Positions 7,936 to 29,696 of a stretch of DNA of 35,285 nt are shown one piece after another. The stretch is from the IMG/VR virus record IMGVR_UViG_3300044640_001033, positions 1-35,285 of that record; one strand, given 5' to 3'. Under the pieces are notes generated by a model, which was not told the origin of the DNA, did no database searches, and saw nothing but the letters and a program-made list of their open reading frames with translations. Position numbers and translations under genes: made by a program. The stretch is from a virus. Position 1 is the first letter of the stretch; each line of letters starts with the position of its first letter.

Positions 7936-7939
7936 GGTG

Positions 7940-8263: not shown

Positions 8264-8272
8264 GTCGGATGT

Positions 8273-8301
8273 ATGTTGGCTATGTCTGATTTATTCGTCA
8301 A
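8273..8301 (-). promoter_or_regulatory. Candidate internal promoter before the DnaA-like gene
   Basis: On the minus strand, TTGACG (plus 8296-8301), 17 bases and CAACAT (plus 8273-8278) sit in the 49-base gap after the SF2 helicase gene. The -35 is the same TTGACG as at 4257-4262 and 12489-12494. The -10 is poor and lies only 9 bases from the ATG, so confidence is low. Confidence 0.25.
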
Positions 8302-8312
8302 TGGTTTTTTTC

Positions 8313-9968: not shown

Positions 9969-9992
9969 GGTGTGTTGTGATGAAAATGAAAA

Positions 9993-10071
9993 GTCTGCTA
10001 GTGGCGTGTTTCACACGGCAACAACGCACCTGTATCGGGCTCTCCCCAACCACCATGCACCACTAGCAGAC
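9993..10071 (-). ncRNA. Candidate structured RNA or attenuator, 79 nt
   Basis: Perfect 12-bp arms GTCTGCTAGTGG (9993-10004) and CCACTAGCAGAC (10060-10071) enclose 55 bases. A second hairpin CGTGT-TTC-ACACG (10005-10017) lies inside, immediately after the first arm. On the minus strand the element ends in a TTTT run 24 bases before the helicase ATG, and it begins 7 bases past the stop of the small gene at 10079. It could be an attenuator or terminator, an mRNA-processing element or a small RNA. It does not look like a tRNA. The pairing is seen directly; the role is inferred. Confidence 0.5.
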
Positions 10072-10078
10072 AGAATTT

Positions 10079-10267
10079 TTATACGGATGAGACGAAATCG
10101 CAGTCAAGATGTTCCTGTAATGCTTTTCGCGCTCTCCACCCGACTGGACCAGACGCGCTGGCCAGCCGGAGGATTGTTTCGATAGCAGCCGCTTTGCATG
10201 GTGTTGTGCTGTGTAGCGTTTGCAACGCGGCCCATAGCTCTAACAGGATCAGGGTTTGTTGAGCCAC
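10079..10267 (-). CDS. Small helical protein with GTG start
   Basis: A 62-residue protein from a GTG at 10267, overlapping the end of the upstream ssDNA-binding-type gene by 19 bases. An AGGAG site lies 7 bases before this GTG, which supports the start. The product is mostly helical (LILLELWAALQTLH ... AIETILRLASASGPVGWRARKALQEHL) with a normal-looking composition. No family is recognised. It fills the space between the upstream gene and the 79-nt structured element. A longer reading of the same frame upstream of the GTG would overlap the neighbour heavily and is not favoured. Confidence 0.45.
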   Translation of the reverse strand: MAQQTLILLELWAALQTLHSTTPCKAAAIETILRLASASGPVGWRARKALQEHLDCDFVSSV

Positions 10268-10821
10268 GATGGCGCTCCTGATGCCGGAGCTGCTGGAGTC
10301 GCGAATGCGGTCGAGCGGGTGGCGGGTTGATTGCCACTGATGAGCTCGCTCCAGCCCTTGTAGCCGGAGCCGGAGTTGGGATTCGGGGTGAGCCACTCAC
10401 CAACCTTGTTCTTGTCGGCGTAGCCATCAGTGCCCTTCTCCACTTTCACGCGGACGCCGATCGTGCCGCCATCAATGTCGGCGATGACGTCACCGATGCA
10501 GGTTCCCTCGCTGTTATAGCGGGTGTAGCTATTCTCGTCGGCAGGCTTAAAGATTCCGACAGCTTCGCAAATGCGAGTGAGCGCGAGCAGGCCCATCTTT
10601 CTTCCGCCGTCGCTGGCGTTAGGGCAGAATGGATCCATAATCATGTCGAAGATTTTGCGACCAGCAAAAGCCCCGTCGGCCATGGTGAGCTCGACGTCGA
10701 GGTATTGAGCGCCCGATGCTTTGGATTTCTTGATGGATCGAACGGTGAGGTACGCTTTGCACAAAGTGCCTTGCGGGATGAGTGCGATTGCGTCTTGTTG
10801 GGATGAGTTAGGACTGAACAT
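10249..10821 (-). CDS. DUF669-like ssDNA-binding phage protein
   Basis: A 190-residue protein. Residues about 15-140 have the OB-like pattern of DUF669-type and single-strand-binding phage proteins: IPQGTLCKAYLTVRSIKKSKASGAQYLDVELTMADGAFAGRKIFDMI, then GLLALTRICEAVGI and GVRVKVEKGTDGYADKNKVGEWL. The C-terminal 40 residues are low-complexity (Pro, Ala, Ser) and end SWLNKP rather than in the acidic tip of classical SSB. It is expected to coat single strands for the neighbouring Sak4-like ATPase, its usual partner. The ATG has an A/T-rich leader and no clear ribosome site. Confidence 0.7.
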   Translation of the reverse strand: MFSPNSSQQDAIALIPQGTLCKAYLTVRSIKKSKASGAQYLDVELTMADGAFAGRKIFDMIMDPFCPNASDGGRKMGLLALTRICEAVGIFKPADENSYTRYNSEGTCIGDVIADIDGGTIGVRVKVEKGTDGYADKNKVGEWLTPNPNSGSGYKGWSELISGNQPATRSTAFATPAAPASGAPSWLNKP

Positions 10822-10857
10822 AGTAGTATTATTTTCTTTGGTTGTTGGTTGTGAGAA

Positions 10858-11724
10858 TTAGATGGTTGTAGTGAGGGCGGTATCGAGGCGTTTGCCGGTG
10901 TGGATTTTATTCATAAGCGCGCCAAGATCCGGCGGCTCAAGCTCCTCCAGCCGACCTGAACGATCTTTCGCTGGAAATCCCATGCCGTTGTCTTGGGTGC
11001 AGTAGAAGCACCTGCTTTTCTTCCCCTCCACCACCAGCGGCTTGCCGTTTACGTCATGGACATAATCGAGCGTAAGCACCTGATCGAAGATGCCGGCGAT
11101 TTCGCGGGCGGCCTTCGACCCCTCAATTTGTGGTACGTATGAGACGCGCTTCAGATCATCTTCCATGCGATCGAGGATCCCAACCACGACAATCGACTTC
11201 GGCGAGTGCTGGAGGTGGGTGAGCCACTTGATCATCTCGCGACCAAGAAGGCCGTAGGCGCCAAGGGTGTCCTGCTTGCCGGTCTTCTGCGAGAATGCCT
11301 CGGGCTGGGTAAGCGCCCATGAGAAGCACCACCGCGACGCAACCGTGATTGAGTCGATGTAGATGGTTGAGTATTTCTCCAACTCCTTCGCGCCACCAAG
11401 GAGGTTGGCGATTTGATCAAACATGGCCGCGGAGTATGCGCCCGATGCGTCGGCTGGATCGGCGCCACCCACAAAGAGGGCGAGCGCGCGAGTCATTTCC
11501 CACGGGTGAGCGCCCACGTCAGTGGCGAGTTTGCGGATATCCACCACGTCTCCCGCCCAATCCTGGAGGGCGAGCGTGCCGCCTTCAAGGTCAAGGAAGA
11601 GGGTGGACTTGGCGTCAAGTGTGCGGGCCTGCGTGGTCTTGCCGACCCCGCTCTGCCCGAACATGGCGATGTTTATTTTTGGACGGGCTTTGAGGCGCTC
11701 GTCGGCCTTAATGATACCTTTCAT
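10858..11724 (-). CDS. Sak4-like P-loop ATPase (AAA_24), phage recombination
   Basis: A 288-residue RecA-like ATPase of the AAA_24/Sak4 group. Walker A is GQSGVGKT (23-30), an LDLEGG segment follows (45-49), and Walker B is IYIDS with D124. Sensor-type IVVVGILDRMEDDLKR and a C-terminal LEELEPPDL tail are also present. Sak4 proteins anneal or exchange strands together with a single-strand-binding partner, and the DUF669-like gene follows directly. With the Cas4-like nuclease in the same operon this makes a plausible phage recombination set. No RecT, Beta or Erf protein is present. Confidence 0.78.
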   Translation of the reverse strand: MKGIIKADERLKARPKINIAMFGQSGVGKTTQARTLDAKSTLFLDLEGGTLALQDWAGDVVDIRKLATDVGAHPWEMTRALALFVGGADPADASGAYSAAMFDQIANLLGGAKELEKYSTIYIDSITVASRWCFSWALTQPEAFSQKTGKQDTLGAYGLLGREMIKWLTHLQHSPKSIVVVGILDRMEDDLKRVSYVPQIEGSKAAREIAGIFDQVLTLDYVHDVNGKPLVVEGKKSRCFYCTQDNGMGFPAKDRSGRLEELEPPDLGALMNKIHTGKRLDTALTTTI

Positions 11725-11744
11725 TTTTTGCTTTCTGTTTTTGG

Positions 11745-12158
11745 TTATTCCTTGTCCTCGACCACCTTGATCGAGAACGGGGAAAGTTTCACCTGCCGCG
11801 CGAGGATGATCTCGCCGAGGAGTGGGTGGTCAATGGCTTCCAGCTTGCGGAAGTTTTCCTCCGCGATGGACAACTCCGCTTTGATGATTGTGTGCGCGTC
11901 GGGCAGCTTGGCGGCAACCGCCTTGAGCTTCTCGCTGTCCCACTTCACCGTCTTGCGGATGGTACCTTGGATCTCGATTCCCTCCACGGAGAGCTTGAAG
12001 TCACCATGGTCGGCGTTCTTGATAAACAAGCGCTCTTCCATCGACGGCCATGAAATGTGCGCCAGGGCGGCGTCGATGTCGGCGATCTCGCTCTTAATGT
12101 TGTTGGCTCGCGCGACCAGCGCTTTGCGCTGAGCAACGAGTTCTTCTGTGTGTGTCAT
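11745..12158 (-). CDS. Conserved phage early protein, coiled coil plus small domain
   Basis: A 137-residue protein. Residues 1-45 form a coiled coil (ELVAQRKALVARANNIKSEIADIDAAL). Residues about 60-137 contain IQGTIRKTVKWDSEKLKAVAAKLPD, then a helix and a terminal strand. The latter resembles a phage family found beside recombination genes, in which a beta strand and R.v.WD...L...a..lp are conserved. The ATG overlaps the Cro-like gene's stop (ATGA). It is the second gene of the early operon. Function is unknown; a single-strand annealing accessory role would fit the position. Confidence 0.55.
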   Translation of the reverse strand: MTHTEELVAQRKALVARANNIKSEIADIDAALAHISWPSMEERLFIKNADHGDFKLSVEGIEIQGTIRKTVKWDSEKLKAVAAKLPDAHTIIKAELSIAEENFRKLEAIDHPLLGEIILARQVKLSPFSIKVVEDKE

Positions 12159-12397
12159 GTCAATTGCTTGTTGATGTAGTTGTTAATGTCGATTGGCTTG
12201 CCGATGGTTGCACCCAGCGCGCCAAGTTGAACCAAGCGGCGAGTGGGTACGCATCCGCGGGTAATCCAACTGTCGATCGTCTTGATGGAGATGTGCTGGT
12301 CATGCTTCATCAAAAGCCTCCAGAGTTGGGTGGTACCACCGAAATGCGACACTAGCTTTTTGGCGTCCATTGGTTTGTCTGATGTGGTGTTGTTCAT
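12155..12397 (-). CDS. Cro-like HTH regulator
   Basis: An 80-residue protein from the ATG at 12397; upstream codons in the same frame run through the control region and are not coding. Residues 12-75 fit a Cro/CII/YdaS-type helix-turn-helix: KLVSHFGGTTQLWRLLMK ... ISIKTIDSWITRGCVPTRRLVQLGAL. It is the first gene of the leftward early operon and is divergent from the repressor, as cro is from cI in lambdoid phages. It probably shuts off the repressor promoter during lytic growth by binding sites in 12398-12554. No good ribosome site is seen. Confidence 0.7.
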   Translation of the reverse strand: MNNTTSDKPMDAKKLVSHFGGTTQLWRLLMKHDQHISIKTIDSWITRGCVPTRRLVQLGALGATIGKPIDINNYINKQLT

Positions 12398-12425
12398 CGG
12401 CGCGCGGCCAACATGCAAAAAATGC

Positions 12426-12436
12426 ACTGTCACAGT
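12426..12436. promoter_or_regulatory. Short palindrome near early promoter region
   Basis: ACTGTCACAGT is a perfect 5-1-5 palindrome in the divergent control region, about 30 bases upstream of the Cro-like start. It overlaps a minus-strand TTGACT (plus 12434-12439) that could be a -35 box, although no convincing -10 box follows 17 bases on. It is a candidate regulator site for the leftward operon. Confidence 0.3.
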
Positions 12437-12488
12437 CAAATCTTTTTTCTTCTTTTTTTTGGGGACTTTATCCAACGACAAAAATCTG

Positions 12489-12518
12489 TTGACGATCCTG
12501 TATTTTGCAGGATATTGT
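12489..12518 (+). promoter_or_regulatory. Repressor promoter
   Basis: TTGACG (12489-12494), an 18-base spacer and TATTGT (12513-12518) form a plausible sigma70 promoter 36 bases before the repressor ATG. The spacer is almost exactly filled by the 17-bp operator dyad, so the repressor would control itself. Confidence 0.6.
12496..12512. promoter_or_regulatory. Repressor operator in control region
   Basis: TCCTGTATTTTGCAGGA has arms ATCCTG/CAGGAT (12495-12513 with the flanking bases) around a 7-base AT-rich centre. It lies between the -35 and -10 boxes. A near-identical site occurs at 26-42, before the rightward genes at the left end. Confidence 0.55.
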
Positions 12519-12554
12519 CGTTGTAGCAAGACACAAACCAACAGGAAAACAACC

Positions 12555-12953
12555 ATGGCACGCAATACAAACTACGCACCACTGGGGGCAAACCCCGATC
12601 AAGCAAAGGAAGAGTTCGGAGAAAAACTCCGGCATTACATGAATCAGCGCGGATGGAATCAGTCCGACCTGGCTCGCGAAGCGGGCCTCCGCCGCGATGC
12701 AATCTCAACATACGTGAGGGGCAAGGTGTGGCCGGATCCATCCAACCTACGAAAGCTGTCTGATGCGCTTCGAGTGGCGCCAGGCGACCTAATTAAAGGC
12801 ATGTCCGATGTTCCTAGTAGTTCGCCATCACGCCAGACAACGCCTCAGGTGGAGATCCAACAGACAGGAGAGAATGAAATATTCCTGCGAATCAACCGAT
12901 CGGTTTCGTTGGAGCAGGCAGCCCAGATCCTCGCCATCTTGAAGGCGCGGTGA
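12555..12953 (+). CDS. CI-like repressor, short form without peptidase domain
   Basis: A 132-residue protein with an N-terminal HTH_3 domain at about residues 20-75: FGEKLRHYMNQRGWNQSDLAREAGL followed by RRDAISTYVRGKVWPDPSNLRKLSDAL. A Ser/Thr/Pro linker leads to a short C-terminal strand-helix segment (EIFLRINRSVSLEQAAQILAILKA) that may dimerise. The LexA-like S24 peptidase domain of classical CI is absent, so RecA-stimulated self-cleavage is not expected. The ATG at 12555 has CAGGA eight bases upstream. The gene is divergent from the Cro-like gene and is followed by the excisionase-like gene with a TGATG overlap, making a repressor-xis-int transcription unit. Confidence 0.75.
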   Translation: MARNTNYAPLGANPDQAKEEFGEKLRHYMNQRGWNQSDLAREAGLRRDAISTYVRGKVWPDPSNLRKLSDALRVAPGDLIKGMSDVPSSSPSRQTTPQVEIQQTGENEIFLRINRSVSLEQAAQILAILKAR

Positions 12954-13300
12954 TGAAGCTGGTCACGCAAGCGGAAGCCGCGGCAATCCTGCGGAAATCC
13001 CTCGCAACAATTTACCGATGGAGGCGATCCGGCCTGCTTCCATCCATCGCCGGCAGACCGGTGATGATCGACTTGGCCGACATCGAAAAACTAAAGGACA
13101 TACAACAATGGCAAGACATACAGCAGGACCACGGCTCGGGAAATCACCGGCTGGGTATTACGAAATCAGGTGGACCGAAGAAGGGCGGAGTAAGCGCCTT
13201 TCAACGGGGACAGCAGACATGGTTGAGGCGCAGCAATTTTTCGCGGGCTGGCTCCACGAAAAAGCCCGCGACCCCAAACGCCCGCCCTCCGTCAAGGTAA
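12953..13300 (+). CDS. Excisionase-like / MerR-type HTH protein
   Basis: A 115-residue reading frame whose first 55 residues form a MerR/AlpA-type winged helix: LVTQAEAAAILRKSLATIYRWRRSGLLPSIAGRPVMIDLADIEKL. This fold is shared by phage excisionases and AlpA-like activators. The start overlaps the repressor stop (TGATG). From about residue 53 the frame runs 193 bases inside the integrase gene, and that tail is basic and looks like an out-of-phase reading of integrase codons. The tail may be genuinely translated or may be an unselected extension. The close link to the repressor suggests that it is made in lysogeny, which is unusual for an excisionase, so a regulatory role is possible. Confidence 0.6.
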   Translation: MKLVTQAEAAAILRKSLATIYRWRRSGLLPSIAGRPVMIDLADIEKLKDIQQWQDIQQDHGSGNHRLGITKSGGPKKGGVSAFQRGQQTWLRRSNFSRAGSTKKPATPNARPPSR

Positions 13301-14157
13301 TTCTTCAGAGCTACCTGAAAGAGCACATCAAAGATCCGGAGACTCGCGACTACATAATCGCCGAGCGCATGATCGAAATGTTCGGAGATACTCCGGTGGA
13401 TGCGCTGACCGCGGATCGAATCGCCACCTACTGCGAGCAGCGCGGGGTGAGCGGTCCAACCCTGCGGCGGGAGCTGTCAACGTTGATCGCCGCGCTCAAC
13501 CACGCTCGGAAGCAGCGGAGAATCAATCCTGTTCTGATTCCGGTAATCAGCCTGCCGGACGCTGGGGCGCCGAAGACCAGCTCGTTCTCGGAGGACCAGC
13601 TTGAGTTGCTCCTCCGGCTCAGTGCACCGAAGTTGGGGGAGCGAGCCTCCCGCATCCACCGGTTCGTCTGGATTGCCGCGGAGACTGCCAGCCGCCGCGC
13701 TGCGGTGGAGACGCTGGAGTGGCGACAGGTGGATCTCAAGGCTGGCGTGATTCGGTTTGCGGATGAAGGCAACGGCAAGGTGCGCAAGCGCAAGCGCCGC
13801 GTCACGGTGCCGATCTCAGCCCGCCTCATGGATAAGCTGGTCCAGTGGAAGGCCGAGGCGGGAAGCGAGCTGGTCCTCGACAACTCCCACAACATCTACC
13901 GCTACTGGATCCCGCTAATTGCTGAGGCGGCCAGGGTGAGTGGCAATCCGTCGATCATCGACCTCACGCCGCACGACCTGCGGCGCACCTGGGCCACGCT
14001 CGCGGCCAAGGCTGGGGTGAGCATGTGGGACATCGCCGGCATCCTCGGTGACAGCCTGCCTGTGGTCATCAAGCACTACGCTCACCACTCCCCCGACTAC
14101 CTCCGCAAGGCGGTGAATTTCAGGGGCGGTATCGGGGTGGAAAGCCCCATCGGGTGA
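13108..14157 (+). CDS. int: Tyrosine integrase
   Basis: A 349-residue site-specific recombinase that joins phage and host attachment sites. The ATG at 13108 has AAGGA nine bases upstream and lies inside the excisionase-like gene. Residues about 15-50 look like an arm-binding domain (PAGYYEIRWTEEGRSKRLSTG). About 60-140 is the SAM-like core-binding domain. The catalytic domain shows ETASRR (R196/R197), a basic hairpin KVRKRKRRVTVPIS, HDLR (H289, R292) and HYAHHSP with nucleophile Y324. The usual second histidine in LGH is replaced (LGDS, D315), a substitution also seen in other phage integrase subfamilies. The catalytic tyrosine is intact, so the enzyme is probably active. Confidence 0.88.
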   Translation: MARHTAGPRLGKSPAGYYEIRWTEEGRSKRLSTGTADMVEAQQFFAGWLHEKARDPKRPPSVKVILQSYLKEHIKDPETRDYIIAERMIEMFGDTPVDALTADRIATYCEQRGVSGPTLRRELSTLIAALNHARKQRRINPVLIPVISLPDAGAPKTSSFSEDQLELLLRLSAPKLGERASRIHRFVWIAAETASRRAAVETLEWRQVDLKAGVIRFADEGNGKVRKRKRRVTVPISARLMDKLVQWKAEAGSELVLDNSHNIYRYWIPLIAEAARVSGNPSIIDLTPHDLRRTWATLAAKAGVSMWDIAGILGDSLPVVIKHYAHHSPDYLRKAVNFRGGIGVESPIG

Positions 14158-14190
14158 TTATTTACGCAAGACATTGACCGACACTCATTA

Positions 14191-14271
14191 CCCACACCCA
14201 TTGATTTTACTCGCTTTCTAGCTGTCCGATCATCAGACAAATAGCCTAGACGATGCGATCAGGGGTGTGGG
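14191..14271. repeat. Inverted repeat in int-downstream gap
   Basis: CCCACACCC (14191-14199) and GGGTGTGGG (14263-14271) are perfect 9-bp arms spaced by 63 bases. A smaller imperfect hairpin, TGTCCGATCATCAGACA, lies between them at 14223-14239. This 134-base gap (14158-14291) separates convergent genes and contains no gene. It is a reasonable place for attP or for transcription termination, but no T-tract and no tRNA fragment is visible. Confidence 0.4.
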
Positions 14272-14291
14272 GTTTCAATTACTTAACCACC

Positions 14292-14582
14292 CTACGGGGC
14301 GGAATCCGGGCTAACCATTCGATAAAGGTTCGTCATGTTCCCGCCCATGTTCACCTTCCGCTTCTCGCACTGCCCACCGCGAACCATGCGGTCGAGCTTA
14401 AAGCGGACGGATTCAAAACTGCGCGTTTTGCCTTTTTTATTCATCTCGCTCCACAACTCCATCACGGTGAACTCGCCATCTTGTTTTGGCTCGGGGCGCA
14501 TAATTTGCAGTGCCGCCTCAATGCCAGTTAGATGATCCCTTGTGGACTGATCCAAGTGTCCCCTTCTTTTGTGACCTGCCAT
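14292..14582 (-). CDS. Winged-helix-like DNA-binding protein
   Basis: A 96-residue protein from the ATG at 14582, which has AGGAG ten bases upstream. Residues 1-20 are basic (MAGHKRRGHLDQSTRDH). Residues about 36-92 look like a winged helix: GEFTVMELWSEMNKKGKTRSFESVRFKLDRMVRGGQCEKRKVNMGGNMTNLY. The final strand pair would be the wing. It overlaps the metallophosphatase end by 55 bases and is the last gene of the leftward late region. A transcription regulator is likely; the target is unknown. Confidence 0.55.
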   Translation of the reverse strand: MAGHKRRGHLDQSTRDHLTGIEAALQIMRPEPKQDGEFTVMELWSEMNKKGKTRSFESVRFKLDRMVRGGQCEKRKVNMGGNMTNLYRMVSPDSAP

Positions 14583-16254: not shown

Positions 16255-19200
16255 TTAGTAGTAGGTTGTGGTTTTCATTGGCCCCTTTTTCTTGGTCTGG
16301 ATCGGGCCTGCTACTGCGCTCACCGCGCTTTCCCGCGCCAGCGGGTGGCGGAACGCCTGAACAAGAGCTGCCGAGAGCGGCCCCGCCGGCATTCCGGCAA
16401 ACACCGCATTGAGCGCTGGGGTGGCGATCGTGTTGTAGCCGGTTCGCGCCAGCTTCCGCTCGGCGGTGTTGGTGTTGGCGCTGTTGCGTTCGCCGTAGAG
16501 GTTGACGACCGACTGGAACAGCTCGGACATGCCGCCTACTGCTGGGCCTAGGACCACGGTGGCGGGCTCGCGCTGGTAGCGGGCGCCGGAGACAATGTTG
16601 AACAAGGTGTCGTAGGGCCCGAGGATGCCGGTGCGGGATGCGGCGCCAAGCGCGCGGGCCATGTTGACTTCCGCTTGGGTCTTCTCCTTGTCGCGCTTGT
16701 TGCGCTCAAGGTCCACGAAGATCGTTTCGCGGAGGACCTGAATACCGTACTGGAGGCCGTAGATGGCAGCGATGGCCTTGGCTGCGTCGATCGCCACTTG
16801 GCTGCGCTCCCTGGTGGAGAGCTTCTCCGTTGCCCCGTCAATCTCCACGGTGCCGCGGTAGGCGTCTTTCAACCTGCGAGCTTGCCGCAGCGTGAACTTC
16901 TGATGGAAGTCATAGAGGAATGACTGGAGCTGGTAGAACATGCCGGCCACTGGGTTGTTGGCCTTCTGAGCGCGGGTGCCGCGGGTGGGGTTTAGGGCTG
17001 CGCCGGTCTTGTGGAACATGGACAGCGCTTTGCGATAGAGAGCGGCGCCAGGATCATCACCGAGGATTAGTTTGTTCTGGTCGGTTGCCTTGTCGAGCTT
17101 GGTGACGAAGGCGGCCATCACATCGATGTCCTTGGTGCTCATGCCGAGCTCGTTGAGCTCGCGCTTGGCGAGGGTGGACATTGAGCCTCCAGCCTTGGCC
17201 AGCTTCACCTGCGATGAGATGAAGCTCTTGCCTATCTTGGTGGCAGCGTCGAACGTGAGATTGGTCCAGCCGGAGAGGCCGGTGAGGCGATGGAAATTTG
17301 TGACCAGCCTGCCACCTTTGCCGCGACCGCCGAACGAATCACCGAGCGCATTGCTGGACATCAAGCCATCGAAGGAATCAGCCACCAGTCCAAGCTCGCG
17401 GTTGAGGATGCGGATCTCGTCCGGTCCTGCTTTTCTCAGCGCGCGAACAATTCCCTTGGCGATCTGAGCGTAGGCTCGACCGGTGTCGGTTATCCTGCCG
17501 GTTCTCGCGCCGATCAATGCCGGCTCACCAAGTGAGGCCACGGTGGCGTGAGAAAGGTAGGCGAGCTGAGTGTAGGTGTGGAGATGACCAACGAGCCTCC
17601 TCACGGTCTCGTTGTTGGAGCCGTTAAGGTTGAGGTAGTCCTTCACGAGCTGGGCGGCGATCGGGATCATATCCTGATTACCTTCAGCTTCTAGCTGGGC
17701 GCGGAGAGCTTTCCATTTGCCAACCGGGTCGATCTTGCCATCTGATCTCGATGAAAGCACCCGTGCCTTGGTCGCTGCCCGCACGGTGGCGAGAGCCTCC
17801 GCGGTGTCCATGGCGGCGATGTTGCGGTGGTAGAATTTGCCGAGCAGCTCGTCGGCCTCGGGTCCGAACTCCCGCTTTTTCAGGAATGACGGCTGTCCGC
17901 CGCCCTCTGCCGCGGTGATGTCGTTGCCGTCCGATGAGATGCCGTTGTTATCCGATGTGATGGCGTAGAGGTATTTCTCCGCCGCAGCCTGTGCGTCCAT
18001 CTTCTCCAGCTCGCGGATCTTATCCTTGATGCTGGTGGTGTCTTTGCCCTCGGCTGCCTTGATGGCTTCCTGCTCGCGGAGCTGGGAAATCTCGCGCGCC
18101 CATTTTCTCATGTAGGCACGCTTGGCCTTCTCAATAAACTCTTTTGGATTGGTCAACACCTTCTCGGTGTCGATTGACCGGCTGAGCGACCGCTCGCCAG
18201 CATCGCCAACATCCACGCCAGCATTACGCAGGTAGGCCAGTCGCTCGCGGCGACGCTTGATGAAGTAGTCAACCGCCTCCTTGAGTTTTGGCTCCTTGGC
18301 CAGCTCAGCATCGCGGGCTGGGTTGACCACGTGATCCGCCACTCTCTCCAGCCATGCCGCGCGGGCCGCGTCGTTGATGCCTTCTTTCTTGAAGTACGCA
18401 TCAAGGCCCGTATCAAATTTGATACGCTCATTGTTCATGCGTCGCAAATCAGCTTCGGACAATCCATCGGCGCCCTCGAAATTCACGCCGTCCTGGCTGG
18501 CTCTTACGCCCATGATGTCGGCGAAGAACTTATTGGCGGCGGCGCTATCCTTCCCAGTGATCTTGCCCTCGGCGAGCGCCTGCATCTTGCCGCCGATGCC
18601 ATTGAAGTAGGTGTTGCGGAAAAGCGACAAGCCGCGCTGGATGTGACGCAGCGTGCTACCATCTCTCACTCCACTGGCGATCTCGGCCAGGTGCTCCTTC
18701 ATTGCGTCACCGTAGTCACCCCACGGGGTCTTGTTGCCAGACATTGCCATCTCTTCGGCGAACATCATGTCGGTGACGAGTCGCTCGAAATTCTTTTTGA
18801 GATAGCCCTTTTGCTCGGGGAACTTGGCGACGAGCGCGTTGAGGATGTCTTGCTCGTTCGGTGTCTTGCCGCTGGCGATAAGCTCTTGCGTCACCTTCGG
18901 CATCTCCACCTTGAACTGCTGGTCCTTGCCTTTACCGATGATACGCGCCTCGTCCAGCTCGGCGTGCATCCGGATCCTTGCGGGCTTCTGTTGATCCTTT
19001 GGCAGCTTGGCAATCTCGGCCAGCACGGTCTTCGCCTGTGTGCGGTAGTCGGCGCGGTCGGCCACCTCTTGCTTGGCGGCGTCGAGCGCCTCGCGGAATG
19101 ACGTGGCCGGCTTTGCGTCGTCCACTTTAGAGTAGCGGGTGGGTCCGTCTGCCATTCCGCTTTTCACCTTGCCCATCCCCCTCTTGAGGAGAGCGGCGGC

Positions 19201-22200
19201 GATTATCTCTGGATCCTTGGCTGCCTGGCCGGTGAGGTTCTTCCAGGTGCGTCGCGCAATCTGGAGTAGCTTCTGCCAGAACGTGCGGCCTTCCGGCGTG
19301 CGGTCGAGGATCGAGCGCAGGGCTTTCACCAGCTTCTCTTCTGCCTTCACGGAGGTCGGCGCGTCCGAGTAGAGCTTATCCACCGTGTCGTTGATCTTGG
19401 TGCGGGTGTCTTCATCGAGCGAGTCGTAGAGCCGCTGGAACACAGCGCGCTCTTTCTCGTCGCGGAACGCGGTGTGGCCCACCTCTTCGTGGAGCGCGGA
19501 GCGCACGCCTTCCGGCCCAACCTTCGCTGCGTTCAGCTCGATCGTGTCGCCATTGACGCGCGCTTCCCAGTCGGCCTTCGGCTCGTTGACCACCTTGACG
19601 TTCTCTGGGCGTTTACCGCCAAAGAAATCATCAGCCGCCTTCTCCACTCCCGTGATGTCCGCGGTGCGGGCCGGTGCATCGGTCTTGGAGAATGGCATGT
19701 TGTCAGGCGAGATTTCATCGGGCCTCACTCCAAACAGCGGGGCGTCTTCCTCCTCGTCGAAGAGTCGGGTTTGCGCCTCGTCCTGAGCCCGCGCAGCTTC
19801 CTCTTTGGCATCGCGCTCTGCCGTGATCTTGGCACCGTCCTGAGTGCTTTCCGAAGCAAGAGCAAACCCACCGTCGTCGTCGAACAACTGGCGCGAATCT
19901 TGGTTGCGTATATCCATCGGCGATACTGGCCGATTCGCTGGCTCCTTTTGAAGAGCCTCCTCCTCTAAGCGAGCGTAGTAGGTATCGGACTCGTCTTGGT
20001 AGTCACGGGTCTTTCCTTGCGCAATGTCTTCGATTTCGCTTCTCAGCTCACTCCATAGAGTGTCTGCATCCTTGTCCTGAACCACGTTATCAGGACCGCT
20101 TGCGGAGGAATCGTCATGCTTGGCGTAGATCGAGCGAAGCAGCTCCTTCGCCGCCTCCTTGCCTTCTGGCGTGCCTGGCATTGCGTCAACGTCGGAAATT
20201 TTGATCCATCCGTCGTACTCGCCGCCTCTTACGTTCTCTGCCAGAATGTTGTTTTCCTTTGCGGAAAGGGTGATCCCATTCTTCTTCTTGCCGAGAATGA
20301 GCGCAACCTGCGGTGACGGGCTCTTGATCCTGTTGCCGTCCAGGCTGCTGAGCCCAGGAAATGAATCAATGTTGTTGTCCACCGACCGGAGGATGCGCGA
20401 GGCACCCTTTGATGCGGTTTTGATTACACGTGGGATCTCGGACTTAGCCTCGCCCCTTTGAGCCACCAGCTCCTTCTGCGTGCTCTGCAAGCTCGCGAGC
20501 CGGTTTTCTGCTTTCGTGATAGTCTGCTTGGGTGCCCCACCCTTCTTCAGCTCGTCGATCTTCACGCGCTGGGCCATGATCTCTTTGCCGGTCGCCTCGA
20601 TCTCGGCGCCGAGGTTCTTCACGCGGGTTCTAGGCGAGAGCTGGCGCGGTGCCGGTTCCGGCGTGGGCGATGTTGCATCCGGTTGTATTTGTATGTATTC
20701 CTTACCGTTGAGCGTGGTAAATGATACGCCGTCATATCCGTCCTCCCGTGCCTTATTAACAATGTTTTCCATTGTTGCTGATTTGGGCAGGCCTAATTTT
20801 TCTTTTGCATCAATCCATTTTGGAACATCGAGCAGGTTGTTGAAAACAACGTCATACTCCGCGACGGTTCCACTCTCGCCAGCGTATGCCTCAGCCACCT
20901 TGCGGTCAGGCGACATAAATAGCGCGTCCCTTACGGTCGGCTGAGACTCCTTGCCCTTCTGGACCCCGCGATACAGTTTGATCTTCGCTACCGGAGCTTC
21001 GGCTTGCGTTTCGGTAATCGGCACCGGTGGCGCATCAAGCGGGTTAATATCTGTCCTGAACTCGGGGTTTCTCGCCTTGGACATTTCAGAAACCGCCCAC
21101 CGTTGCCCTGACTGGTTGTTGATGACCACTTTACCATTCACGACGGGATGCGCCTCGATAACACCTTGGCGGTTTTTCCATACCTCCCAGGTATTTCCAT
21201 CACCGTCTTTGAACCGATCTCCACGTTGCGGCTCCGGCACTACCGTAGCTTCGGTTTGCGCTTGGGTGTCTTTTGCGGATTTTGGTTGGCGAATCATGGT
21301 CTCGCCATTGGCTTGCGCGACAAATCCGAACTTTTCGTACCACCTAATAAGCTGCTCTTTGTTCAGATTGTTTCCATCTGAGCCAAACGGTTTGGCAATG
21401 AGTTTGACTGGGACATCGTAATCATCAGCCATTCCCACGAACCTGCGCATCACCTCAGTGGCGAGTCCCTCCCCTCTCTTATTAGATGGAGCTGATACCG
21501 ACTTCAGTATTACGAAGTTCCCAAAGTTATCAACCTCAAGCTGAACACCCTCAGGCGTGACGACGCGCTTATCTCCGTCACTCTCAAATCCTACTGCGTC
21601 ACCGAGTGCTTCGCGAATGTCTTCCGCGGCGCTACGGTATTTTGGGCTCACGCTGCCAAGGCGAATTTTAGACGGAATGCCCTCATCATCGGATGCAATA
21701 GGAGGAGCTCCCGCATTCTCCGGAGCGACCGGAGCGATACCTGTTGCTTCAGGTCCGATAGTAAGCTTGGCGCTAGCTGGAGCGGCAGAGGCTACGGCGG
21801 GCAAGGGGGGTTCGTTGTTCAGTATTCTCCTTGCGGCATTTGCATTGGAGGTGGCGTCTGCGGCTGCAAGGCTTGCGCGTTGAGACGGGATTTCTGGGCT
21901 GCTAACCGGAAGAGGAAGCCGTTGATATTTCCCAGCGTCCCTGGCTGCGGTGATGGCTGCGATGTTTTCAAGGTCTCCTGAGAGCTTGTCGATAACGGCG
22001 GTTCTGGTTTCATCGGATAGTGTTGGGTTGTTCTGGGCGATGGCGATTGCCTGCTTAATCTGGTCTTCAGCGACGAGGATCTGCTCATCGGTGATCGAGC
22101 GAAGCTGCGGCGAGAACTCTGGCGTGTCGTAGACCGGAATGCTCTTCCTGCCCTTCTGCTTCTTGAGTGAAACGCCAAGCTCGGCGATGTCAAGAAGATC

Positions 22201-23571
22201 GTCGGTGTTGTTGTCGATGACGCTGAAGACCGACTGAAGGGATTCGTTTTCGGTTTCACCGAAGAAGCGGGTTGCCGTGGCGCGATCTTGCTGCCGGTCG
22301 AACGTTGGCTGAACGCCAAGCTCGGTGAGTGATCGGTCGGTGCCATAGCTGAATGGCAGCTCGACAAGCGCTCCGTCAGCGCGGAGTAGCGATGGGCGGC
22401 CTTCGTCATCGACGAGCTTGCCCATCTGTCCATCCCATTCGACGTTGGTGTCGATGAGGTCGGAGAGTGTGGGGTCTGGCTTGCGGGGTGGCGTGACGTC
22501 GATCGTGCCGCCTGAATCCATGGTGGTGGCAGGCAGGTTAGCTCCCGCCGCGCGAACGTCATTCGGCGTGACGGTGGCTCCCGCGCCGGATGGCGTGAGG
22601 GTGAGTGGGTCGATGCCGGCCTGCTGAGCGAGATCGCCCGCCAGCCTGGTGGTGCCAGTGGCGACCAAGGGTGGGGCTGGCGGGGCTGGCGGGGTTGGAG
22701 CAAGTGGTGCCATCGGCCCGCGCATTGGTGGCGTGGGGCTGGCTGCCGGCGGCGGGGGAGTGACAGTAGCTGTGGGCTCTGGAGTTGCGACTGCTGGCTC
22801 GACTGGTTGCTCCGGAGCTGGGATCATCGCCCCTTGCCCGAGGGCTCGGCCAAGGCGGTTTGGGTTGCTGAACAATGCGCCAGCGGCGGCATTGAGCGCA
22901 ATCTGCCTCGGATCCAGTGGTTGATCCATGGCAAGAGATTGACCGGCATCAAAGGCGCCGCCGACTGCCACCTCGGATCCCACATTGATCCGGCTGTTGA
23001 TGATAGCTGCGCGCTCGGCTGCGTTAGCGGCACGGCCAAGTGGAGTGAGCGCGGTGCGAATAGTTCCTGGTGAGAACTTGCCGGTGATGAGCGCGGGCGC
23101 AACCTGGCCCCCAAAGCTCGCAATCGGATTTACTTCTCGGTCGCGCTCTAGCGCCGCCTGTCGCTCTGCGGTGATCGGATCAACCGCTTCTTGGATCTTC
23201 TGGCCACCGAAGGCCCCCGCAACACCACCGATCAAACCGCCCCCGATGGTGCCAATGCCCACAGTCAATGGATTGCCGCCCATTGCCCCGATGGCTGCGC
23301 CGGTCTTGCCGCCGGTGAAAGTGCCAGCAAGAGCGCCACCTATACCGGCTCCCAGGTTCTCGCGTGCATTGCGTAAGAAGGATCCGGTCATGGACGGGTC
23401 ATTGCCGGCGGCCTCCAGCTCAGCCTTCTGGCGAGCGGCGCCCATACCAAGCGGGCTTTGCGGCTGCGGTGTCCCGTAGTTATTCTGGATAGCGCGAGCG
23501 ATGTCCGCATCGCTCATTCCATCAGGAAATTCTACCTGTCCAATATCGGGGATTTCAATGATCTGTGGCAT
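16255..23571 (-). CDS. Giant polyvalent ejection protein with GNAT-, ART- and metallopeptidase-like regions
   Basis: A 2438-residue protein, the largest in the window. Residues 2-33 are the short IPDIGQVEFPDGMSDADI module common at the start of phage internal proteins. Residues 73-124 are a glycine zipper (GAGIGGALAG...GGGLIGGVAG) suited to crossing membranes. About 245-300 is Pro/Ala repeat linker. About 640-765 is GNAT-like (RGEGLATEVMRRF, then LIRWYEKFGFVAQ). About 862-965 resembles an ADP-ribosyltransferase of polyvalent proteins (LYRGVQ, AEAYAGESG, DGYDGVSF). H1361-E1362-H1366 (HEEVGH) marks a zincin-like metallopeptidase region. About 1500-2438 is helical and ends in regions like ejection-protein C-termini (GLSGWTNLTFDAATKIG, FYQLQSFLYDFHQKF). 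It is probably carried in the capsid and injected. Domain calls are by pattern. Confidence 0.75.
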   Translation of the reverse strand: MPQIIEIPDIGQVEFPDGMSDADIARAIQNNYGTPQPQSPLGMGAARQKAELEAAGNDPSMTGSFLRNARENLGAGIGGALAGTFTGGKTGAAIGAMGGNPLTVGIGTIGGGLIGGVAGAFGGQKIQEAVDPITAERQAALERDREVNPIASFGGQVAPALITGKFSPGTIRTALTPLGRAANAAERAAIINSRINVGSEVAVGGAFDAGQSLAMDQPLDPRQIALNAAAGALFSNPNRLGRALGQGAMIPAPEQPVEPAVATPEPTATVTPPPPAASPTPPMRGPMAPLAPTPPAPPAPPLVATGTTRLAGDLAQQAGIDPLTLTPSGAGATVTPNDVRAAGANLPATTMDSGGTIDVTPPRKPDPTLSDLIDTNVEWDGQMGKLVDDEGRPSLLRADGALVELPFSYGTDRSLTELGVQPTFDRQQDRATATRFFGETENESLQSVFSVIDNNTDDLLDIAELGVSLKKQKGRKSIPVYDTPEFSPQLRSITDEQILVAEDQIKQAIAIAQNNPTLSDETRTAVIDKLSGDLENIAAITAARDAGKYQRLPLPVSSPEIPSQRASLAAADATSNANAARRILNNEPPLPAVASAAPASAKLTIGPEATGIAPVAPENAGAPPIASDDEGIPSKIRLGSVSPKYRSAAEDIREALGDAVGFESDGDKRVVTPEGVQLEVDNFGNFVILKSVSAPSNKRGEGLATEVMRRFVGMADDYDVPVKLIAKPFGSDGNNLNKEQLIRWYEKFGFVAQANGETMIRQPKSAKDTQAQTEATVVPEPQRGDRFKDGDGNTWEVWKNRQGVIEAHPVVNGKVVINNQSGQRWAVSEMSKARNPEFRTDINPLDAPPVPITETQAEAPVAKIKLYRGVQKGKESQPTVRDALFMSPDRKVAEAYAGESGTVAEYDVVFNNLLDVPKWIDAKEKLGLPKSATMENIVNKAREDGYDGVSFTTLNGKEYIQIQPDATSPTPEPAPRQLSPRTRVKNLGAEIEATGKEIMAQRVKIDELKKGGAPKQTITKAENRLASLQSTQKELVAQRGEAKSEIPRVIKTASKGASRILRSVDNNIDSFPGLSSLDGNRIKSPSPQVALILGKKKNGITLSAKENNILAENVRGGEYDGWIKISDVDAMPGTPEGKEAAKELLRSIYAKHDDSSASGPDNVVQDKDADTLWSELRSEIEDIAQGKTRDYQDESDTYYARLEEEALQKEPANRPVSPMDIRNQDSRQLFDDDGGFALASESTQDGAKITAERDAKEEAARAQDEAQTRLFDEEEDAPLFGVRPDEISPDNMPFSKTDAPARTADITGVEKAADDFFGGKRPENVKVVNEPKADWEARVNGDTIELNAAKVGPEGVRSALHEEVGHTAFRDEKERAVFQRLYDSLDEDTRTKINDTVDKLYSDAPTSVKAEEKLVKALRSILDRTPEGRTFWQKLLQIARRTWKNLTGQAAKDPEIIAAALLKRGMGKVKSGMADGPTRYSKVDDAKPATSFREALDAAKQEVADRADYRTQAKTVLAEIAKLPKDQQKPARIRMHAELDEARIIGKGKDQQFKVEMPKVTQELIASGKTPNEQDILNALVAKFPEQKGYLKKNFERLVTDMMFAEEMAMSGNKTPWGDYGDAMKEHLAEIASGVRDGSTLRHIQRGLSLFRNTYFNGIGGKMQALAEGKITGKDSAAANKFFADIMGVRASQDGVNFEGADGLSEADLRRMNNERIKFDTGLDAYFKKEGINDAARAAWLERVADHVVNPARDAELAKEPKLKEAVDYFIKRRRERLAYLRNAGVDVGDAGERSLSRSIDTEKVLTNPKEFIEKAKRAYMRKWAREISQLREQEAIKAAEGKDTTSIKDKIRELEKMDAQAAAEKYLYAITSDNNGISSDGNDITAAEGGGQPSFLKKREFGPEADELLGKFYHRNIAAMDTAEALATVRAATKARVLSSRSDGKIDPVGKWKALRAQLEAEGNQDMIPIAAQLVKDYLNLNGSNNETVRRLVGHLHTYTQLAYLSHATVASLGEPALIGARTGRITDTGRAYAQIAKGIVRALRKAGPDEIRILNRELGLVADSFDGLMSSNALGDSFGGRGKGGRLVTNFHRLTGLSGWTNLTFDAATKIGKSFISSQVKLAKAGGSMSTLAKRELNELGMSTKDIDVMAAFVTKLDKATDQNKLILGDDPGAALYRKALSMFHKTGAALNPTRGTRAQKANNPVAGMFYQLQSFLYDFHQKFTLRQARRLKDAYRGTVEIDGATEKLSTRERSQVAIDAAKAIAAIYGLQYGIQVLRETIFVDLERNKRDKEKTQAEVNMARALGAASRTGILGPYDTLFNIVSGARYQREPATVVLGPAVGGMSELFQSVVNLYGERNSANTNTAERKLARTGYNTIATPALNAVFAGMPAGPLSAALVQAFRHPLARESAVSAVAGPIQTKKKGPMKTTTYY

Positions 23572-25525: not shown

Positions 25526-26299
25526 TTATCCCTTGACAGGGATGGCTTTTGGGGCGCCGGCAGTGTTAGTGTTGGGCGCCTTTGACGTGCCGTAGGCGTA
25601 TCCAAGTTGGCCGAGCGCCTGCACGCCCTGTCCGGCGAGCGCGAGGCCGGCGCCCTTGTTGGCTGCTGCCTCTCCCTGAACGCCGTAGAGCTGTCTCGAC
25701 GCGCCCGACATCAAGTCGTAGGCCTGTACGGGGCGGTTGATCGCGGACATCTGGCTGTTGACTAGCGAGATGTTCTCGCCGGATTGGCGAAGGCGATCGA
25801 GCCCCAACTCGCGAGCGCGACCAAGGGCCATGAGCGCCGCCTGCGCCTTTGCTTGCTGGTCGCCATAATCCTGCGCGTAGCTGAGCTGGGTGTTGAGCGC
25901 GTTGCGGTAGGAGTTGGTGTCAGCGCTTGGCGTGGCCCCTTCCACCGACACGGTGCCAGTGGATTGAGATGCGTCTCCGCCCATGCTGCCGGCGTATGCC
26001 TGGTCGCCCGCGGCGGCCAATGCTTGGGCGAGCTTATCGGTCTGCTCGTTGGTGTCCTGCTCTACGTTCTCGCGAGTGTAGGCTTTGAGAGTGTTGTCCT
26101 GAAATGATTTACGCGAGCGAAGGGCGTCCTCCTCCTGCTGCTTCTGCAAACCCATCTGCTTTCGCATGATTTCGCCTTGGCGACTCACCTCTTGTAGGCG
26201 AGCTGTTGCCATGGCTTTCTGCTGTTGGTTCGAGGCCCTCGCCTGCATACCGATGCCGGCTATGGTGGAAACTGTTGCTGCTACTGCTATCCAGCTCAT
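25526..26299 (-). CDS. Internal virion protein, gp14-like
   Basis: A 257-residue protein with a hydrophobic N-terminus (MSWIAVAATVSTIAGIGMQ), a long Gln/Ala/Arg coiled coil (about 22-85) and an Ala/Gly-rich C-terminal third (GEAAANKGAGLALAGQGVQALGQLGYAYG). This layout resembles T7 gp14-type ejection proteins, which form a pore in the outer membrane. The position between the hydrolase-like protein and the cupin-like gene agrees. Its stop overlaps the next upstream start (ATGA at 26296-26299). Confidence 0.65.
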   Translation of the reverse strand: MSWIAVAATVSTIAGIGMQARASNQQQKAMATARLQEVSRQGEIMRKQMGLQKQQEEDALRSRKSFQDNTLKAYTRENVEQDTNEQTDKLAQALAAAGDQAYAGSMGGDASQSTGTVSVEGATPSADTNSYRNALNTQLSYAQDYGDQQAKAQAALMALGRARELGLDRLRQSGENISLVNSQMSAINRPVQAYDLMSGASRQLYGVQGEAAANKGAGLALAGQGVQALGQLGYAYGTSKAPNTNTAGAPKAIPVKG

Positions 26300-26751
26300 T
26301 GGATTTGCTCTATTTTGTTATTGGATATGCGCCATTGCGCGATGTGGTTTTCAAGGAGATGGTTTGAATGAGGCGCGATAATGTCTTCTGCAATCTTATC
26401 AAGATCCGTTTTCTGTGTGACGTGATAGGTGGTCCATACGACATCGGTGATCGCGCGAATCATGCGCCTGGTCCCTGCTTTAGTCACGCCATGAAGAGGA
26501 GCTTTGTAGAAAACAGCACCTTCGTTTTCGGAGATCACTTCAAGCTCTCCCTCAGTCAAAACAAACGGATGCTCAGTTTTATGCTCTGCACTGGTGAACA
26601 TTGTTCCGGCTGGCACAGTGGTTTGCCTGATGTAAAGCCCAGGCGTGAACCGATGGACCACCGGACAATCCACGGCAGGGTATTCCGTCAACGCAGCTTC
26701 AAACCGGTCAATGGTCTCCTTGATCTCTTGACTGGAAGTTAGCTCGCTCAT
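26296..26751 (-). CDS. Cupin-fold phage protein
   Basis: A 151-residue protein. Residues about 28-112 look like a cupin-type double-stranded beta helix: CPVVHRFTPGLYIRQTTVPAGTMFTSAEHKTEHPFVLTEGELEVISENEG, then TKAGTRRMIRAITDVVWTTYHVT. Similar proteins, with HkT.H..vl..G.l.v and a late TDvvW....., occur in podovirus structural regions; their role is not clear to me. Histidines at the H-x3-EH position could bind metal. It overlaps both neighbours (ATGA at its end gene junction, TAATG at its start). Confidence 0.65.
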   Translation of the reverse strand: MSELTSSQEIKETIDRFEAALTEYPAVDCPVVHRFTPGLYIRQTTVPAGTMFTSAEHKTEHPFVLTEGELEVISENEGAVFYKAPLHGVTKAGTRRMIRAITDVVWTTYHVTQKTDLDKIAEDIIAPHSNHLLENHIAQWRISNNKIEQIQ

Positions 26752-28003: not shown

Positions 28004-29696
28004 TAGAGGTGAACTTGAGACCGATGTGGGTACCTGATGCGCCAATCCTGAAATTGGGGAGGTTGAAGTTTGAAAGCTCAACCGAGCCTGCCTTGGCGTA
28101 ACTATCCGTGGTTGGGTCGGTCGAGTAGGAGATTGTCCAGCTACCCTCGCATCCAATGTCGATGCCCTTGAACTTTTTCTTGTTGCCAGGGCGATCTGCC
28201 GATAGCCAGCTCAGCTCGACTTCGGCGAGGCTGTTGTCATAGACATTGCCGCTGATGCCGCCATAGATGTAAATCTCGTCGCCGGATCGGCAAAGGAGCT
28301 GATTGCCGTAGATAGCCCAGTCTTCGACCGCGAAACCTGGCTCGTAGATTGTCCACGCTGAAATCGAGGATGCTGGGAAAAACGAATAGACAAACACCTT
28401 GTCGCCAAGAGCAAGCATGTACCGCCCCTCACGAGGCTCCACCACGCCGCAGGACCGCGCCACCTCAGCTTCGGTGAGGTCATTCATCTGGTTGATGACG
28501 AGCGGATCCACCGCTGTACCGACATCGAAGACCACGGCGGCATTGGATGAGTCGCGCGCGCGGAGCGAGCGAACGCCGGTGTCCGAAAGGAAGAAAACGT
28601 CCATCTCGCCAAAGTTTATTGCGCTGCGAGGAGCGATCGAGCCTACGTTGTCCAGTATCTGCTTGGGCAGGTTATCTGAAGGATCACCGGCCACCACCTG
28701 CCAAATCTGGGTTGATCGACGAGCGAACACCGCCAGGAATCCTTGGTAGGGCGCTGTCGTGACAAGCGTCTCGGCACCGCCGGTCTGAGCGGAAAGGCTT
28801 TCAAATCCGGCGAAGGTGTCTTCTTTCTTGCCGGCGGAGTTGGTGAAGGTTGTGGTCCAGCGCGTCGGGTTATTGACATCTGAGAAGTAGAGCGTCCCTT
28901 GAACGGTGGCGTAGACCTTTCCTCGGAATGTGCGTGCGGATGTACCGGTGCCGGATGCCGATGGTGTGACGCGGTATGGGGTGTTGTTGACAATTACCTC
29001 CCACGATTCGTCGCCATCAAAGGAGGGGTCATACCCACCGAAAAGCTCGACAGTAGAAATTTGCGGATGCGATATCGTGGCGGATTGAACAATGTCGGTA
29101 ATTGCTGAATTGTTAGAACCACCCTCTACATTGCTTACTGAAACACTCAGCGTAAAGGGGGTATTTTTAGCTGAGGCCGTGATGGTGATTTTGTTGGTTG
29201 CTGTATCGTATGTAGCATCAACCGCTGCGTCGGTCGATACCAGTGACGCAAGGGATTGGCCGAGCGTGTCGATGTCTGAGATATTCGGGGCGATGGTGTC
29301 CCAGTCGGTGACGCGCGCGCCATTGTAGAAGTGGTGCACCGCGCCGTCGGAAAATTTTGCCACGACGTATGGAACACCGTTGTAGGTGTCCACGCTGAGG
29401 ATCTCTGAAAGGTCTGGGCTACCTGGGGCGGTGAGCTGTTGGTAGCGCAGGGAAGTCGGCACGGAAGGGTTGGTCGCGCTGCCAAAAACATAGATGCCAT
29501 TCTTGGTGGCCCACAGTCCTTTTGTTTGCCCAGGTTGGAGGGATGCAAATGGCACGAATGCCTTGCGCTTCTCCACCTCGCCGCCTCGGTTAATGTGGAT
29601 GTTCTTGCCTACCGAGAGGCTGCCTTGTTGAGCAGTGATTCTGCTACGGCGAGCATCCAACCCGCTCTTGAATGCGTTGACGAAGATGAATGCCAT
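27936..29696 (-). CDS. Tail tubular protein B-like (nozzle)
   Basis: A 586-residue protein with the opening of T7 gp12-type nozzle proteins (FKSGLDARRSRITAQQGSLSVGKNIHINRGGEVEKRKAFV), an Ig-like/beta-propeller-type middle, and a late PIR-type VFSVFARRSTQIW-like stretch (LAVFARRSTQIWQVV). This is followed by IAPRSAINFGEMDVFFLSDTGVRSL. Nozzle proteins close the tail tip and contact the ejection machinery. It overlaps tail tubular A by TAATG and ends with DYTETPS. Confidence 0.75.
   Translation of the reverse strand: MAFIFVNAFKSGLDARRSRITAQQGSLSVGKNIHINRGGEVEKRKAFVPFASLQPGQTKGLWATKNGIYVFGSATNPSVPTSLRYQQLTAPGSPDLSEILSVDTYNGVPYVVAKFSDGAVHHFYNGARVTDWDTIAPNISDIDTLGQSLASLVSTDAAVDATYDTATNKITITASAKNTPFTLSVSVSNVEGGSNNSAITDIVQSATISHPQISTVELFGGYDPSFDGDESWEVIVNNTPYRVTPSASGTGTSARTFRGKVYATVQGTLYFSDVNNPTRWTTTFTNSAGKKEDTFAGFESLSAQTGGAETLVTTAPYQGFLAVFARRSTQIWQVVAGDPSDNLPKQILDNVGSIAPRSAINFGEMDVFFLSDTGVRSLRARDSSNAAVVFDVGTAVDPLVINQMNDLTEAEVARSCGVVEPREGRYMLALGDKVFVYSFFPASSISAWTIYEPGFAVEDWAIYGNQLLCRSGDEIYIYGGISGNVYDNSLAEVELSWLSADRPGNKKKFKGIDIGCEGSWTISYSTDPTTDSYAKAGSVELSNFNLPNFRIGASGTHIGLKFTSNDSKPARISSAVVHFDYTETPS

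What the first reader, a model, noticed from the sequence alone, without database searches (positions are those of the whole stretch)
16255..23571. 2438-aa polyvalent ejection protein with toxin-like segments
A single virion gene seems to link a glycine-zipper entry region, a GNAT-like segment, an ART-like segment, a zincin-like HEEVGH site and an ejection-type C-terminus. Such multi-effector proteins may disable host defences as soon as DNA enters. The combination and order here are worth defining.
Basis: partly seen in the sequence, partly recalled or inferred. Interest (0 to 1): 0.78.

Follow-up and report, generated by a model that had tools for sequence, protein, structure and literature searches.

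The report
Injected phage protein with swappable cargo
A phage gene encodes one giant protein, probably carried in the virus particle and injected with the DNA, whose enzyme modules are swapped in and out at two fixed slots; a survey of similar giant phage proteins suggests that each marks its module joints with its own short, probably cuttable, peptide.

Summary
The 2438-aa ORF is real, but it lies on the MINUS strand (16255-23571) and ends the virion gene block of a podovirus-like, integrase-bearing phage. It is a phage-type polyvalent protein, a known class (Iyer 2017). Segment by segment: glycine zipper present; GNAT supported (sequence motif, homologues, fold match to the anti-CRISPR acetyltransferase AcrVA5); ART plausible but below Pfam cut-off; HEEVGH lies in a metallopeptidase-family domain (aa 1297-1478, pLDDT 82) but is HExxxH, and one relative has NEEVGH. 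New here: (1) four close relatives keep the scaffold (mostly 80-97% DNA identity) but differ completely in two slots, aa 630-981 and aa 1470/1479. The GNAT and ART occur only in this copy; two relatives carry two different genuine ART-PolyVal modules in slot 2. (2) Across 45 non-redundant giant phage proteins, the short peptide ending an ART cassette recurs before its leader; it is consistent within a protein, differs between proteins (p about 5e-5) and follows the carrier, not the cassette. (3) A Q-type peptide goes with one zincin class (held-out set 6/6 versus 1/22). Best reading: a polyprotein with exchangeable, proteolytically released cargo. Cleavage is inferred, not shown; evidence within this window alone is modest.

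The parts
16255..23571 (-). 2438-aa giant ORF, last gene of the virion block
   Evidence: neighbours
23467..23571 (-). N-terminal head, aa 1-35 (PDG-type); replaced by a different head in L006
23182..23367 (-). Glycine-zipper stretch, aa 69-130 (11 GxxxG, 34% Gly); candidate membrane or channel element (inferred)
20629..21684 (-). Cargo slot 1, aa 630-981: content differs in every relative
21268..21654 (-). GNAT-like module, aa 640-768; R699xxG702xA704 motif; absent from all relatives
20980..21267 (-). Small beta-rich module, aa 769-864, kept at 99.6% DNA identity in L003 without the GNAT or ART
20656..20985 (-). ART-like module, aa 863-972 (R868, S887, E958); weak
19684..19695 (-). Junction peptide PFSK, aa 1293-1296, kept in all four relatives; candidate cleavage site
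19138..19683 (-). Zincin-family domain, aa 1297-1478; AF2 pLDDT 82.5
19474..19491 (-). HEEVGH, aa 1361-1366 (HExxxH; N in place of the first H in L006)
19135..19164 (-). Cargo slot 2 (aa 1470-1479), empty here; filled in L003 and L004 by two different ART-PolyVal modules, each with a 45-aa leader
19126..19137 (-). Junction peptide RYSK, aa 1479-1482; also ends the ART cassettes of L003 and L004
16258..19125 (-). Conserved C-terminal scaffold, aa 1483-2438 (87-98% aa identity among relatives); distant relative in Microcystis phage Mae-Yong1326-1

Best explanation
The gene encodes a phage polyvalent protein: a conserved scaffold (entry and packaging parts) carrying exchangeable effector modules at two slots. 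It is made with the virion proteins and probably packaged and ejected with the DNA (inferred from gene position and relatives). In this copy slot 1 holds a GNAT, a small beta-rich module and an ART-like module, and slot 2 is empty. The modules probably act on host proteins or defences just after entry (inferred). In giant proteins of this kind the modules are separated by a short peptide particular to each carrier. This is most simply read as the cleavage site of the carrier's own metallopeptidase, so that the polyprotein is cut into separate effectors. In this window the candidate sites are PFSK and RYSK on either side of the zincin domain. Shown: the ORF, homologies, slot turnover, carrier-specific junction peptides, and the association of one peptide type with one zincin class. 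Inferred: virion presence, injection, enzymatic activity, cleavage, and that the zincin is the protease.
For: Slots: DNA identity to L003, L004 and L002 is 81-97% in the scaffold (L003 and L004 99.6% or no match inside slot 1), but breaks sharply at aa 629, ~980, 1470 and 1477-1479, with different content in each relative. L003 is 97.4% identical over 10.9 kb downstream, yet carries an extra ART module and lacks the GNAT and ART. Slot-2 inserts in L003 and L004 are genuine ART-PolyVal (34.6 and 51.1 bits, cut-off 31.2). Junction peptides: own versus swapped similarity 13.8 versus 7.1, p 5e-5, 45 proteins; still significant with 24 scaffold clusters. Tails within a protein score 17.6 versus 1.3 between proteins. 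At equal cassette identity the peptide follows the carrier, not the cassette. Codons agree only slightly more than chance (46 of 90, expected 35), so recent DNA copying does not explain most cases. In L017 a GNAT, and in L024 a PBECR5 nuclease, also lie between copies of the same peptide. Q-type peptides go with one zincin class: 11/14 versus 1/51; held-out batch 6/6 versus 1/22, p 1.9e-5. Virion context: P22-like portal, SU10-like capsid and adaptor proteins; same gene position in Mae-Yong1326-1.
Against: In the window itself [FY]SK occurs only twice (expected 0.42, p 0.07), and in L004 the peptide before the ART leader is RMSA, not RYSK (rank 24 of 45). The zincin site is not canonical, and L006 has lost the first His. 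Most S-type carriers show no recognisable HExxH in the sequence held (23 of 30), so the zincin cannot be the universal protease. Proteins with the Q-linked zincin share one distant scaffold family, so part of that association may be descent. N4 vRNAP, a relative in kind, is packaged unprocessed (PMC5512222).
Confidence: 0.6

Rival explanations
1. The protein is cut at the junction peptides, but by another protease (a phage maturation protease or a host protease); the zincin is inactive or is itself a host-directed effector.
For: Non-canonical HExxxH and loss of the His in L006; many S-type carriers lack a recognisable HExxH; SPN3US head proteins, including packaged ones, are cut by a separate prohead protease (PMC10052503, abstract).
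Against: Q-type peptide and zincin class go together in the same chain; no prohead protease was recognised among the window proteins scanned.
Confidence: 0.25
2. The junction peptides are not cut: they are residues of recombination or tandem duplication, or linker signatures kept within a protein by gene conversion.
For: Tandem units exist (L030, L051); same-codon excess of 46 versus 35.4 expected.
Against: Many identical peptides use different codons; unrelated domains (ART types 1 and 2, GNAT, nuclease) share the peptide within a carrier.
Confidence: 0.2
3. The protein is only a structural or ejection protein; the slot modules are decaying passengers without activity.
For: ART-like module of the window is below Pfam cut-off and without a confident fold.
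Against: The frame stays open over 2438 codons with GNAT motif residues kept; intact, above-threshold ART-PolyVal modules sit at slot 2 of near-identical relatives.
Confidence: 0.12

Closest known systems
Phage-type polyvalent proteins (Iyer et al. 2017, PMC5512222)
   Same: Giant multidomain protein beside virion genes; ART, GNAT next to ART, zincin-like MPTase including HEXXXH forms; MPTase proposed to cut the protein into functional units.
   Different: The text passages examined describe no cargo slots with turnover between near-identical phages and no carrier-specific junction peptide; supplementary files were not searched.
Microcystis phage Mae-Yong1326-1 UUJ74515.1 (2441 aa)
   Same: Same gene position; 24% identity over the C-terminal 675 aa.
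   Different: No similarity detected in the N-terminal two thirds; annotated as peptidoglycan transglycosylase; canonical HELGH and HEWAH sites by eye.
N4-like virion RNA polymerases (Xanthomonas PB119, Stenotrophomonas Pokken)
   Same: Carry a GNAT segment 31-33% identical; N4 vRNAP is ejected and has an HExxH domain (PMC12633501).
   Different: No RNA polymerase module was found in the window protein.
AcrVA5 anti-CRISPR acetyltransferase (PDB 6iuf)
   Same: Closest full-length fold match of the GNAT module (TMt 0.72, prob 1.00).
   Different: E-value only 0.013, no sequence match in PDB; target unknown.
Jumbo phage SPN3US head and ejection-protein maturation (PMC10052503)
   Same: Virion head proteins cut by a phage protease during assembly, in a phage that packages and ejects many proteins (abstract).
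   Different: Separate prohead protease; different protein families.

Membership tests
Phage-type polyvalent protein | Two or more domains of disparate biochemical activity in one chain | tested here: met
   GNAT supported, zincin-family domain supported, ART weak in this copy; relatives carry ART-PolyVal above cut-off
Phage-type polyvalent protein | Encoded with virion or late genes | tested here: met
   Downstream of portal, capsid, adaptor and tail genes on the same strand; Mae-Yong synteny
Phage-type polyvalent protein | Packaged and injected | not testable with these tools
   Needs virion proteomics
ART-PolyVal (PF18760) | Score over curated cut-off (window ART-like segment) | tested here: not met
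   18.3 bits against 31.2; the modules of L003 and L004 do meet it
GNAT superfamily | Acetyl-CoA motif (R/Q)xxGx(G/A) and GNAT topology | tested here: met
   R699-G702-A704 (sequence); strand/helix order and Foldseek GNAT matches at modest confidence; Pfam below cut-off
Zincin-like MPTase | HEXXH or HEXXXH plus downstream Glu ligand | tested here: inconclusive
   HExxxH with conserved E1363, H1366 and E1411/E1412; homologues are canonical HELGH, but the first His is shifted and is Asn in L006
Zincin-like MPTase | Three-stranded sheet with N-terminal helix and active-site helix | tested here: met
   AF2 secondary structure, pLDDT 82.5; no solved zincin recovered by Foldseek
Zincin-like MPTase | Proteolytic activity | not testable with these tools
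   Needs an assay

The most novel reading that the evidence does not exclude
Phages use a polyprotein strategy for injected effectors: each carrier has its own short cleavage code, read by a protease in the same chain. Incoming effector cassettes from a shared pool must adopt the carrier's code, which makes these genes plug-in platforms with fast cargo turnover at fixed slots.
Probability: 0.45. Interest if true: 0.85.

Novelty: new variant of a known kind. Interest (0 to 1): 0.66.

Why it matters
Giant injected phage proteins are common, and why they carry metallopeptidases has been a proposal since 2017. If the junction peptides are cleavage sites, the products of each giant protein can be predicted from sequence, the protease role can be tested directly, and effector modules (ART, GNAT, nuclease) can be cut out of uncharacterised proteins at defined boundaries. 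Slot turnover between near-identical phages also marks which cargo is changing fastest, a practical route to new counter-defence enzymes.

Tried and rejected
Whole-protein searches of Pfam, NCBIfam and PDB gave nothing useful, as did PDB sequence searches with the GNAT, ART and zincin segments. GTDB genomes held no scaffold relative, so the host is unknown. Single-chain AF2 of slot 1 was poor overall (pLDDT 50) and did not fold the ART. PDB fold search with the zincin model gave only helical chance matches; in the viral library the best match is a MuF-domain protein of Escherichia phage phi191 (TMq 0.54, E 9e-4). Alignment-based scans with the scaffold and zincin found only the same four relatives. 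Recent DNA duplication as the cause of matching junction peptides: considered and mostly rejected by codon comparison. Cassette inheritance as the cause: rejected by the matched-identity comparison. Single-linkage clustering of scaffolds was too coarse (39 of 45 in one cluster; median p 0.015 with 7 representatives), so graded thresholds were used.

Full report
OBSERVATION. The ORF is real, 2438 aa, 16255-23571, but on the minus strand. The window is a whole IMG/VR virus record of 35,285 bp. The gene is the last of a same-strand virion block: P22-like portal (33105-35261), a capsid protein (30902-31966; PHROG major head protein E 7e-42; SU10_MCP below its Pfam cut-off), SU10-like adaptor (29696-30373) and a short tail fibre gene (26296-26751). 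An integrase (13018-14157, + strand), a Sak4-like protein and a helicase lie further on. Neither Pfam nor NCBIfam names the whole protein, and PDB has no sequence match.

SEGMENTS. Glycine zipper: aa 69-130 has 11 GxxxG. GNAT: aa 640-768 has RxxGxA and a WYEKFGF element. Its relatives sit in N4-like virion RNA polymerases and in giant proteins L133, L105 and L101, close to ART modules in each. The model, although of low confidence (pLDDT about 50 overall, about 60 here), matches GNATs, the best full-length match being the anti-CRISPR acetyltransferase AcrVA5. ART-like: aa 863-972 scores 18.3 bits against a cut-off of 31.2; R868, S887 and E958 stand where an R-S-E type triad could be, but no confident fold was obtained. 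Zincin: aa 1297-1478 is homologous to domains in L019, L032, L040, L045 and L046 that carry canonical HELGH (E 4.5e-15 to 2.6e-6). Aligned without gaps, the window's HEEVGH puts E1362 on the canonical first His and the His one position upstream; L006 has Asn there. The fold model is confident (pLDDT 82.5) and has the three-stranded sheet and helices that Iyer 2017 gives for MPTases, and that paper describes HEXXXH forms. In L040, L045 and L046 the zincin is directly followed by an ART cassette, the same arrangement as in L003 and L004. C-terminal part: 87-98% conserved among relatives and 24% identical to the giant gene of Microcystis phage Mae-Yong1326-1 in the same gene position.

SLOTS. Five relatives were found in IMG/VR; four can be compared in the middle region. 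The scaffold is mostly 80-97% identical in DNA (74% in one stretch of L006), but identity to L003 and L004 stops sharply at aa 629, resumes at about 980, stops at 1470 and resumes at 1477-1479. Slot 1 differs in every relative: GNAT plus small module plus ART here; the small module alone (99.6% identical DNA) in L003; a short linker in L004; other sequence in L002 and L006. Slot 2 is empty here and in L002 and L006. In L003 and L004 it holds a leader (YLAAVExGDTEAAQRMVDEAA) plus two different ART-PolyVal modules over the Pfam cut-off. L003 is otherwise 97.4% identical to the window over 10.9 kb. The four contigs come from four different metagenomes and each frame is open, which argues against an assembly artefact. 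The N-terminal head of L006 is also different.

JUNCTION PEPTIDES. The same leader-ART cassette is widespread: at least 339 places in IMG/VR. Its tail ends in ...IPLSxRF-6 aa-I followed by a 5-mer. In 45 non-redundant giant proteins this 5-mer resembles a peptide just before the leader of the same protein far better than that of other proteins (13.8 versus 7.1, none of 20,000 permutations as high). Examples: NYSVRE...NYSVRE, SYARP...SYARP, LEQAA...FEQAA, RFSPQ...RFSPK. The result holds after reducing to 24 scaffold clusters (p 2e-4, the floor), though a very coarse single-linkage grouping left only 7 representatives with median p 0.015. Exact 4-mers recur 24 times against 2.6 expected from swapped motifs. 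Tails within one protein agree (17.6 versus 1.3), including tails of two different ART types in L135 and L137, with L109 weaker (7). For cassettes of equal similarity (31-52% identity), motif scores are 16-29 within a protein and average 1.4-3.4 between proteins: the motif belongs to the carrier. Codon identity is only modestly above chance (46 of 90, expected 35). In L017 the GNAT domain (1756-1825) lies between copies at 1603 and 1876; in L024 a PBECR5 nuclease starts 5 aa after one copy and a further copy precedes the next ART.

PROTEASE LINK. Peptides with Q in the middle (LFQ, FEQ, RQ) go with one zincin class. With an HMM built from first-batch seeds the counts are 11/14 versus 1/51, and in the second batch 6/6 versus 1/22 (p 1.9e-5); the single exception, L116, has VLQQG and by eye is also Q-like. 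The idea arose on the first batch and was tested on the second. Caveat: these proteins share a distant scaffold (mostly 25-60% identity), so common descent may account for part of it. Most S-type carriers show no recognisable HExxH.

THE WINDOW ITSELF. PFSK (aa 1293-1296) and RYSK (aa 1479-1482) flank the zincin. PFSK is kept in all four relatives although the residues before it vary; RYSK ends the ART cassettes of L003 and L004. Two copies of [FY]SK against 0.42 expected is not significant alone (p 0.07), and the peptide before the ART leader in L003 and L004 is RMSA. The window therefore fits the wider rule but does not establish it.

MECHANISM. Most likely the protein is made late, packaged, ejected, and cut at the junction peptides into the scaffold and free effectors. 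Iyer 2017 proposed that MPTases release functional units. The junction peptides would be the missing cleavage sites; no report of them was found in the papers searched here, which cover open-access papers only.

NOVELTY. The protein is a new member of a known class. The slot turnover and the carrier-specific junction code are, as far as could be checked, new features of that class.

Noticed in passing
L006, N-terminus of ORF at 7881-14312: Its N-terminal head (LQELEKAFLAADAQGNTEDAQVFATEI) resembles the leader of ART cassettes (YLAAVExGDTEAAQRMVDEAA); the leader may be a packaging or ejection tag.
   Followed up: no
L123 ORF at 7547, aa 1055-1448: The zincin profile matches in two pieces (1055-1122 and 1342-1448), as if a module were inserted inside the metallopeptidase.
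   Followed up: no
L030 and L051: Three leader-ART units in tandem, separated by (T/S)YSVLS and IR(Y/F)(M/L)PEP respectively; useful for experimental cleavage mapping.
   Followed up: partly
L024 ORF at 4358, aa 1413-2790: PBECR5 nuclease sits between two ART cassettes, each delimited by FSP peptides.
   Followed up: partly
window 13018-14157 (+): Tyrosine integrase on the strand opposite the virion genes: the phage is probably temperate, yet no scaffold relative was found in 84,980 prokaryote genomes.
   Followed up: partly
L116 ORF at 7439: Only carrier classed as non-Q with the Q-linked zincin class; its tail VLQQGAI is in fact Q-like by eye.
   Followed up: no
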